Assembly: GCF_006770285.1 (NCBI RefSeq)
Contig: NZ_CP017195.1
Span: 2,046,001-2,110,000 of the forward strand
DNA from: Lactococcus paracarnosus
GTDB taxonomy: Bacteria > Bacillota > Bacilli > Lactobacillales > Streptococcaceae
Direction: 5' to 3'
DNA: 64,000 nt
Program-made: the position numbers and the translations under genes
Part shown: positions 19,852 through 56,677 of the stretch, in pieces
How positions within the stretch are numbered: position 1 is the stretch's first letter
Layout: every line of letters starts with the position of its first letter
Notes under the pieces: model-generated
Seen by the model: only the letters and a program-made list of their open reading frames with translations
Told to the model about the DNA's origin: nothing
Databases searched by the model: none

Positions 19852-19962
19852 TTGCGTGTTTCCTCCTTATAATTTGGTATGTTAGACTCGCCTAAGCAGG
19901 TGGACTAAGTCACTTAAACCTTACCTCGTGCGGTTGCACTTTATGAAACTCACAAAGACAAC
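19852..19962 (-). ncRNA. L21 leader RNA (ribosomal protein autoregulatory leader)
   Basis: About 110 untranslated bases precede rplU. On the sense strand they contain GTGCAACCGCACGAGGTAAGG, followed by AGTGACTTAGTCCACC and GCTTAGGCGAGTC. This is the arrangement of the Firmicute L21 leader, thought to let L21 or a partner protein repress its own operon. The identification rests on position and recognised conserved blocks; no covariance model was run. Confidence 0.7.
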
Positions 19963-19968
19963 GTTATT

Positions 19969-19997
19969 ATTCTACCATAATTAGACTGCTTTAGCAA
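19969..19997 (-). promoter_or_regulatory. rplU promoter, -35 inside the duplicated pepN tail
   Basis: The minus-strand -10 TAGAAT (19969-19974) lies 17 bases after TTGCTA (19992-19997). The -35 hexamer is made of sequence that belongs to the pepN 3' end, here supplied by the duplicated copy. Confidence 0.45.
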
Positions 19998-20201
19998 GTG
20001 CTGCTTGCACTTTTTCTTTCTGTGATGCTAAAAGGTCAATCTTGCTTGTAATCTGTGTTTTCGCCATCTCTACAATGCGTTTAAAGGCTGGTTCGTCCTT
20101 AAAGCGATCTGTGAAACTGATGAAGGCCGTAAGTTTAGCCGCAGTATCAAAACTGTTGCCAATAACTTTGATGAAGTCACCTGACGCCATATCACCACCT
20201 A
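19979..20201 (-). pseudogene. Orphan copy of the pepN 3' end (tandem duplication)
   Basis: These 223 bases repeat exactly the last 223 bases of pepN (20202-20424). I compared the two copies by eye line by line and saw no difference. Because 223 is not a multiple of three, the copy is out of frame with pepN, whose stop at 20204-20206 is intact. An open frame from an ATG at 20220 spans 79 codons and includes 70-odd PepN C-terminal residues. It lacks a convincing ribosome binding site, so it is treated as a remnant. Confidence 0.85.
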
Positions 20202-20425
20202 AATTAGACTGCTTTAGCAAGTGCTGCTTGCACTTTTTCTTTCTGTGATGCTAAAAGGTCAATCTTGCTTGTAATCTGTGTTTTCGCCATCTCTACAATG
20301 CGTTTAAAGGCTGGTTCGTCCTTAAAGCGATCTGTGAAACTGATGAAGGCCGTAAGTTTAGCCGCAGTATCAAAACTGTTGCCAATAACTTTGATGAAGT
20401 CACCTGACGCCATATCACCACCTAA
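19979..20425. repeat. Exact 223-bp tandem direct repeat
   Basis: Copy A is 19979-20201 and copy B is 20202-20424, with one shared base at the junction (20425 matches 20202). Left flank, junction and right flank read TACCATAATTAG, ACCTAAATTAG and ACCTAATTTCTC. They share only a short A/T microhomology, so the event did not need long homology. Identity of the copies implies a recent event or an assembly error. Confidence 0.88.
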
Positions 20426-22738
20426 TTTCTCTTGTACCCAATCCCAGTTTTTAACAAGCCACGCAAAAGCAGCATCTTGAGAAAAGTCGCGACGGATGAG
20501 TGATGAGAACCAGAAACGTAAATCTTGTGGTTTAACCAGGTCAGTATTGGTATATTGCGCGATAATTTCAGCAACTGTTGCTGTATTTTTCGTACTAGAT
20601 ACGGCAACGTTTAGCTCACGCTGGAAAGTCTGATCTGTTGTATTGGCATAAGCATCAAAATACTGCTTAACTAACTCAGCCGTCTCATGTTCAACAATTT
20701 GATTTTTCAAGATAATTTGTCTGATATCAGCTGAAATGCTGTGAATATCGGATGCATGTTCCGCAAAAATAGCTGTTGAGTTTGCGACTGCATCTGCATT
20801 GCCAGCATATACTTCCCATGAAATTGGTAAGGCACGCAACTGTTCATCATTAAATGACTCTCCAGCAACTTTATCCCATCCTAGGCGTTTGTATTGGGCA
20901 TCAAATAACTGGCCAACAAATTGTTTGAAATCTGCTTCAGATGCTGAATCTTCATCGATGAAGATTTCAAGTGCTTTCAAAGCTTGTGAGACTGCTGCAT
21001 TGACTGGGTTAGCTGTTTCATTATCAAACTTAGCTAATAAGGTAACCAAGGCTGCATAGTCTGCTAGACCACCTTCAGCGAGCTTCAAGGCTGATTGGAT
21101 CAGTTGCACTTTTGTAATGGCATCATATGTTTGGATGCTAGACACAACTTTTTCATTTAGCTCATCTGAATAGTTGACCAGATAATGTGCCGCATTTTCA
21201 GCATTGAATCTTAAGGGTTGTTCCCCATTTTCAGCTGATAACTTAGCAAAACCAGGGATACGCACTTCTTTTCCTGATAAGACATCAGGTAGACCAGTCC
21301 AGTTCGTGTTTAGCGGGATATGCCATAAGCGGCTTTCATCGACACCTTGTCCAGTGAAAAATTGCTGTTGGCTCAGAACAAGCTCATCTCCATCCACAGT
21401 GACTGATAACACTGGATAGCCAGGTTGGTCAACCCAAGATGTCATAAAGGCTGAAACATCACGACCTGATGCAGTTGACAAAGCTGCCCACAAATCAGAG
21501 CCGACTGTATTGCCATATTGGTGCGTTTCAAAGTAAGCTTGAAGGCCTGCTGAGAAATCTTTATCTCCCAACCATTTGCGGAGCATCACCATCAGACGTG
21601 CGCCTTTTGCATAAACAATGGCACCGTCAAATAAGGTATTGATTTCATCAGGATGATTGACTGCGACATGCACACTTTGTACACCATCGATGGCATCACG
21701 GTTAAGCGCCATTGGGGCTTCAGCTAGAGAAAACTGCTCCCAAATGTGCCAGTCAGGTTCGATGGCATCAATCGCAACGTACTCCATCATGTTAGCAAAC
21801 GACTCATTCAACCATAGATCATCCCACCACTCCATAGTAACGAGATCGCCAAACCATTGGTGAGCAAGCTCATGTGCGATGACTAGGGCAACGTATTGGC
21901 GACTTTCGAGTGTTGAGTTATCAGGATCAGCTAACAAAGCAACCTCACGATAAGTGATCGCCCCCCAGTTTTCCATAGCACCTGCCGAGAAGTCTGGTAG
22001 GCCAATATGCCAAGAATGTGGCAATGGATAGGCAACCTTGAAGTAATCTTCATAGAATTCAATCACGCGAATGGCAATATCAAGTGGGAAATCTAAGGCT
22101 GCTACTTTATGTGCACGTGTTGAGAATACCCCAACTTGAGTACCTGTCTTAGTGTGACCCAGTTTTGATTGCATATCGCCAAAAACAAAGGCAAGTAGGT
22201 AAGATGACATTTTCACTGTCGTGTCAAAGGTGTGGATACCATTTTCATTTGACACTTTTGGCATATTTGACACAATAGATTCGCCAGCTTTTTCATCAAA
22301 CTTAACCGATAAATCAAACGTTGCTTTTGCAGCTGGCTCATCGATAGATGGGAAAGCTTGGCGGGCAAAATGTGTTTCAAACTGGGTGCCAACTAATTGT
22401 TTTTTGACGCCGTCTACTTCATAGTATGACGGGTAGATCCCTGTCATGTTATCTGTTAATTCAGCTGAATAACTAAAAGCAACTGTTACCTTACCTGTTT
22501 TAGCAATCGCGAACGCAACTGTCTCAGACACCTCATCTAAAGTGAAGTCAACTGCTTGACCGTCCACTGAAACAGAGGTAATGGCTAAGTCTTTTTGGTG
22601 AAATGCTAAATCACGTGTTAGTGCTTCACCGGTAACTGTCACGTCACCTGAAAACCGTTTCGTCTCACGGTTAACATCCAGAAAAATGTGATAATTTTCT
22701 GGTTTAAAATCGTTATATAAGTGTTTAAATGCTTGCAT
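20204..22738 (-). CDS. pepN: Aminopeptidase N (lysyl aminopeptidase)
   Basis: A zinc M1 metallopeptidase that removes N-terminal residues, with broad specificity, from peptides in the cytoplasm. It is 844 residues from the ATG at 22738, close to lactococcal PepN (846). Diagnostic motifs are GAMENWG near 254-260 and the zinc site HELAHQWFGD near 288-297. An upstream ATG (22753, ATGGAGGC) is the ribosome binding site, not the start. An extended -10 TGGTATACT lies at 22798-22803. Its last 223 bases are repeated just downstream. The coding sequence itself is complete. Confidence 0.95.
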   Translation of the reverse strand: MQAFKHLYNDFKPENYHIFLDVNRETKRFSGDVTVTGEALTRDLAFHQKDLAITSVSVDGQAVDFTLDEVSETVAFAIAKTGKVTVAFSYSAELTDNMTGIYPSYYEVDGVKKQLVGTQFETHFARQAFPSIDEPAAKATFDLSVKFDEKAGESIVSNMPKVSNENGIHTFDTTVKMSSYLLAFVFGDMQSKLGHTKTGTQVGVFSTRAHKVAALDFPLDIAIRVIEFYEDYFKVAYPLPHSWHIGLPDFSAGAMENWGAITYREVALLADPDNSTLESRQYVALVIAHELAHQWFGDLVTMEWWDDLWLNESFANMMEYVAIDAIEPDWHIWEQFSLAEAPMALNRDAIDGVQSVHVAVNHPDEINTLFDGAIVYAKGARLMVMLRKWLGDKDFSAGLQAYFETHQYGNTVGSDLWAALSTASGRDVSAFMTSWVDQPGYPVLSVTVDGDELVLSQQQFFTGQGVDESRLWHIPLNTNWTGLPDVLSGKEVRIPGFAKLSAENGEQPLRFNAENAAHYLVNYSDELNEKVVSSIQTYDAITKVQLIQSALKLAEGGLADYAALVTLLAKFDNETANPVNAAVSQALKALEIFIDEDSASEADFKQFVGQLFDAQYKRLGWDKVAGESFNDEQLRALPISWEVYAGNADAVANSTAIFAEHASDIHSISADIRQIILKNQIVEHETAELVKQYFDAYANTTDQTFQRELNVAVSSTKNTATVAEIIAQYTNTDLVKPQDLRFWFSSLIRRDFSQDAAFAWLVKNWDWVQEKLGGDMASGDFIKVIGNSFDTAAKLTAFISFTDRFKDEPAFKRIVEMAKTQITSKIDLLASQKEKVQAALAKAV

Positions 22739-22883
22739 ACATGCCTCCATTGTTTTGTTTGGAAAAATTCTCAAACAATAATATTTCATACCTAACTAGT
22801 ATACCAAAATATCAGGCAATCAACCACTTGACGCGATTGAAATCAGTCTGGAAAATAGGCATTAAATTACCACCATTTCCCAT

Positions 22884-56522: not shown

Positions 56523-56530
56523 CAATTTTA

Positions 56531-56677
56531 TTGGTCAATTCAAAAGAAGCTTATACTTCTTTTTGTCGTAACACGACGCGTTACTGATTGGTCAATTCAA
56601 AAGAAGCTTAGGCTTCTTTTTGTCGTAACACGACGCGTTACTGATTGGTCAATTCAAAAGAAGCTTAGGCTTCTTTT
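56531..56677. repeat. 57-bp tandem repeats at the rpsB 3' end
   Basis: Two full 57-bp units (56531-56587, 56588-56644) are followed by a 33-base third copy (56645-56677) that is the end of rpsB itself. The full units differ at two positions (CTTATACTT against CTTAGGCTT). Each holds a palindrome AAAAGAAGC-CTAA-GCTTCTTTT (sense) and a second small dyad GTAAC/GTTAC. The rpsB stop codon lies in the hairpin loop of the third copy. Confidence 0.92.

What the first reader, a model, noticed from the sequence alone, without database searches (positions are those of the whole stretch)
19979..20425. Exact 223-bp tandem duplication of the pepN 3' end, abutting the rplU promoter
The two copies look identical and share only a base or two of homology at the junction, so the event is recent or an assembly artefact. 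The duplicated copy is out of frame and follows an intact pepN stop. It increases the distance between pepN and the ribosomal rplU operon and still provides the rplU -35 hexamer TTGCTA, so the promoter seems preserved. Without the duplication, pepN would end at the same place relative to the promoter. The ancestral arrangement therefore had the rplU -35 inside pepN coding sequence.
Basis: seen in the sequence. Interest (0 to 1): 0.55.

Follow-up and report, generated by a model that had tools for sequence, protein, structure and literature searches.

The report
Recent 223-bp duplication beside rplU promoter
In one lactococcus-like bacterium the last 223 bases around the end of a peptidase gene appear twice in a row just before a ribosomal-protein promoter; it looks like a recent, probably harmless copying slip (or an assembly error) that left both the gene and the promoter intact.

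Summary
Window 19979-20425 holds two identical 223-bp copies plus one base; the exact match run is 224 nt, so only 1 bp is shared at the junction. The genome is near Lactococcus piscium. Ten other genomes of the genus match the locus and none has a second copy; an eleventh, 70% complete, has no match. In four others it does not, and in one an insertion splits the spot. The copies differ at 0 of 223 sites, while the unit differs from its nearest relatives at 15 and 17 sites, so the event is young or is an artefact. It is the only exact tandem duplication with a period of 62-2999 bp in the fetched stretches of this genome. That pepN and the promoter both survive needs no selection: any tandem duplication keeps both flanks. 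Best reading: a recent, near-neutral, homology-independent tandem duplication. An assembly error cannot be excluded without reads. Low interest.

The parts
19979..20201 (-). copy of the 223-bp unit next to rplU: out-of-frame duplicate of the pepN 3' end; supplies the rplU -35 hexamer and 13 of 17 spacer bases
20202..20424 (-). copy of the 223-bp unit that forms the true 3' end of pepN, stop codon included
20201..20202 (.). novel junction between the copies, 1-bp overlap
20204..22789 (-). pepN-like M1 aminopeptidase, 861 codons, intact; the only Peptidase_M1 match in the genome
19969..19997 (-). rplU promoter-like site TTGCTA-17-TAGAAT with TG before the -10; the -35 overlaps the duplicated pepN end
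   Evidence: same layout in relatives
19874..19945 (-). ribosomal protein L21 leader (RF00559), 49.3 bits
19540..19851 (-). rplU (L21)
19981..20190 (-). possible by-product: 69-codon ORF = PepN C-terminal fragment, ATG 14 nt past the pepN stop with predicted Shine-Dalgarno pairing -11.2 kcal/mol; expression not shown

Best explanation
A recent, lineage-specific tandem duplication of 223 bp that spans the pepN 3' end and the upstream half of the rplU promoter. It was most likely made by homology-independent (illegitimate) joining, such as template switching between sister strands near the rplU promoter, with 1 bp of overlap. Because the pepN stop codon lies inside the unit and the right edge lies in the promoter spacer, the left flank plus one copy still gives an intact pepN, and the other copy plus the right flank still gives an intact rplU promoter. 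The net effect is a 229-nt spacer between the pepN stop and the rplU -10 box where the nearest relatives have almost none. I infer that it is close to neutral and, having perfect repeats, probably reversible. Shown: sequence, junction, single copy in relatives, low divergence. Inferred: the mechanism, neutrality, and that it is real DNA rather than an assembly join.
For: Exact copies with a 1-bp junction. No second copy in 10 of 11 other genus genomes searched; the eleventh had no match. Divergence 0 of 223 between copies against 15 of 223 (G001) and 17 of 223 (G006, L. piscium) to relatives; at equal rates this places the event within about the last fifth of the time since the split from G001 (95%, my arithmetic). 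No other exact tandem duplication of period 62-2999 in 114 stretches plus the window of a single-contig genome of 2,265,140 bp, apart from one masked piece that could not be read, so the assembly is not littered with such joins. The same spot also took an insertion with a 29-nt duplicated target in G003, so changes there are tolerated.
Against: No reads were available. A 0-1 bp junction is also what end-to-end joining of two overlapping contigs would give. No second strain of this species could be examined. Neutrality was not tested; the extra copy holds a well-placed ribosome-binding site.
Confidence: 0.63

Rival explanations
1. Assembly artefact: two contigs sharing about 223 bp at their ends were joined end to end instead of being overlapped.
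For: Perfect identity and a 1-bp junction; no second copy in any relative with a match; the sequencing method of this genome is unknown to me.
Against: Only one such duplication in the fetched stretches of a single-contig genome; 223 bp is not a usual k-mer size (recalled); the locus has no other match elsewhere in the genome (one match).
Confidence: 0.28
2. Selected regulatory change: the duplication was kept because it separates pepN translation and transcription from the rplU promoter.
For: Five relatives have the -35 inside pepN; in four other genus genomes the two are separated by other sequence or genes, so separation is viable.
Against: Preservation of both elements is automatic; very low divergence means no time for selection to leave a trace; the extra RNA has no special fold (z -0.44); no new terminator-like site on the pepN strand.
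Confidence: 0.06
3. Birth of a small ORF: the extra copy is translated by re-initiation into a free 69-residue PepN C-terminal piece.
For: ATG at 20190 lies 14 nt past the pepN stop, with predicted Shine-Dalgarno pairing of -11.2 kcal/mol; only 0.8% of 2506 ATGs in the window score as well.
Against: The same site exists inside pepN of single-copy relatives (-11.4 in G001 and G006, -11.6 in G008; weaker, -7.5 and -6.7, in G007 and G004), so it is a by-product of codons; no NCBIfam match for the ORF.
Confidence: 0.03

Closest known systems
Short-junction (illegitimate, homology-independent) tandem duplications of bacteria
   Same: Head-to-tail copies with little or no junction homology. PMC11111574 (passages seen) reports spontaneous tandem duplications in E. 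coli that need no homologous sequence; PMC11721125 (passage seen) describes S. aureus amplification junctions with microhomology or no homology.
   Different: Those examples are selected and alter gene expression (the S. aureus ones are 7-13 kb); this one is 223 bp, not known to be selected, and inferred from one assembly. In PMC3411829 (passages seen) the cut-off deduced for true Salmonella duplications was 11 bp or more of junction microhomology, far more than the 1 bp here, though that screen favoured long microhomology.
rplU promoter with Rfam L21_leader (RF00559)
   Same: Leader present at 49.3 bits against a cut-off of 36.
   Different: Nothing unusual in the leader; the duplication stops upstream of it.

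Membership tests
Short-junction tandem duplication | two adjacent direct copies | tested here: met
Short-junction tandem duplication | little or no homology at the junction | tested here: met
   1 bp exact overlap; a 5-bp AATTA near-match offset by one base, or a longer one, occurs in 2.7% of 20000 random pairs
Short-junction tandem duplication | single copy in the parental state | tested here: met
   no second copy in 10 of 10 other genus genomes with a match; 1 of 11 searched (70% complete) had no match
Short-junction tandem duplication | present in the DNA of the organism (not an assembly join) | not testable with these tools
   no reads; indirect support only
L21_leader (RF00559) | covariance-model score above the gathering cut-off | tested here: met
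   49.3 bits against 36

The most novel reading that the evidence does not exclude
The duplication relieved a conserved conflict in which one stretch had to serve both as the end of pepN and as the rplU promoter, and it created a translationally coupled 69-codon PepN-tail ORF, making this a very young case of function splitting by partial gene duplication at a gene/promoter overlap.
Probability: 0.06. Interest if true: 0.4.

Novelty: new member of a known kind. Interest (0 to 1): 0.15.

Why it matters
Mostly as a clean, datable example of a homology-independent short tandem duplication caught young at a gene/promoter overlap, and as a caution that 'both elements are preserved' is automatic for tandem duplications. 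If real it could serve as a natural copy-number marker for strains of this species.

Tried and rejected
Recombination between flanking repeats: rejected, only 1 bp is shared; the 5-bp near-match AATTA is offset by one base and has P = 0.027, not convincing. Genome-wide assembly problem: not supported. G003 as a second case of the same duplication, because its contigs end near this spot: rejected, it looks like an insertion with a 29-nt duplicated target. Structured RNA in the new spacer: rejected, z -0.44. A second promoter on the pepN strand at the new junction: none found. Outgroup rplU promoters: my anchor word was absent from all 19 loci outside the genus (and from L221, the window's own), and no pepN-like sequence was found in those 19 loci, so no ancestral state was inferred from them. 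Literature: searches on duplication mechanisms and on assembly errors listed nothing about this locus; only listings and the passages named above were seen.

Full report
What is there. The window carries two letter-identical 223-bp copies at 19979-20201 and 20202-20424, plus one further matching base. On the - strand, in gene direction, the first copy met is the true end of pepN (20204-22789). The second, out of frame with pepN, sits between the pepN stop and the rplU promoter. After it come the promoter-like site TTGCTA-17-TAGAAT (19997-19969), the L21 leader (19945-19874), rplU, prp and rpmA. The right edge of the unit falls inside the promoter spacer, just upstream of the -10.

Where it is from. 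The PepN protein is 97% identical to that of Lactococcus piscium DSM 6634; the genome is one contig of 2,265,140 bp. The genus is called Lactococcus_A in GTDB (recalled); a 2025 paper in the listing (title and start of abstract only) proposes the genus Pseudolactococcus, and a 2026 title there calls L. laudensis Pseudolactococcus laudensis.

Comparison. Of 11 other genomes searched in the genus, 10 match the locus and one (70% complete) does not. None of the ten shows a second 223-bp copy. In G003 an insertion with a 29-nt duplicated target splits the same spot and leaves the original end with its -35 on the rplU side. In G002 pepN ends before a hairpin, and rplU has a separate promoter further downstream. 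In G005, G009 and G010 whole genes lie between them (gene labels are my reading). So the boundary is variable in this genus.

Age and origin. The copies differ at 0 of 223 sites; the unit differs from G001 at 15 and from G006 at 17. If the copies diverge as fast as the species do, P(0) = exp(-15f), so f is below 0.2 at 95% (my arithmetic); gene conversion between copies would loosen this. The junction shares 1 bp, so homologous recombination between pre-existing repeats is out; illegitimate joining or a template switch is the likely route (inferred).

Is it real? Scans of 114 stretches plus the window found no other exact tandem duplication with period 62-2999 (the output was cut, one search repeated the scan without the masked piece). 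Shorter exact ones have periods 61, 57 and 24, and a tolerant TRF run lists 24 rows of period 20 or more, the other rows with periods above 61 being diverged. As a rough base rate, 80 loci of other genomes (1,002,921 bases) held one exact case (L027, period 166). This speaks against a sloppy assembly, but a single bad join would look the same, so I keep 0.28 for an artefact.

Function. A tandem duplication keeps both outer flanks, so an intact pepN and an intact rplU promoter are expected whatever the selection. The new spacer RNA does not fold better than its shuffles and has no terminator-like site on the pepN strand. It does hold an ATG at 20190 with strong predicted ribosome binding (best 0.8% of 2506 ATGs in the window), but the same site exists inside pepN in relatives (-11.4 to -11.6 in three of five, weaker in two), so translation of a PepN tail is possible and undemonstrated.

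Verdict.

Noticed in passing
56530-56677: A 57-bp unit repeated 2.6 times lies across the rpsB stop codon, before tsf; each unit holds a hairpin with a stop codon near its loop. Copy number differs by species: by eye 3 hairpins in L. piscium (G006), 3 in G009, 2 in G007 and G008, 1 in G001 and G005.
   Followed up: partly
L219 1-190 and L220 1-160 (G003): The pepN 3' end is split by a probable insertion sequence with a 29-nt duplicated target and imperfect inverted ends, right at the rplU -35; pepN there reads into the insert and gets a different tail. Ungapped end-to-end matching of the ends (18 of 40) did not exceed every shuffle (max 22), a one-base offset fits better by eye; the family was not determined.
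   Followed up: partly
L216, L217, L218 between pepN and rplU: In three relatives whole genes lie between pepN and rplU: a flotillin-like gene in all three, and ABC-transporter-like and two-component-like genes in two (my reading of the translations, no family search).
   Followed up: no
It is the only Peptidase_M1 match in the genome.
   Followed up: no
L027 14012: An exact tandem duplication of period 166 (match run 181) in the Lactococcus hircilactis record.
   Followed up: no
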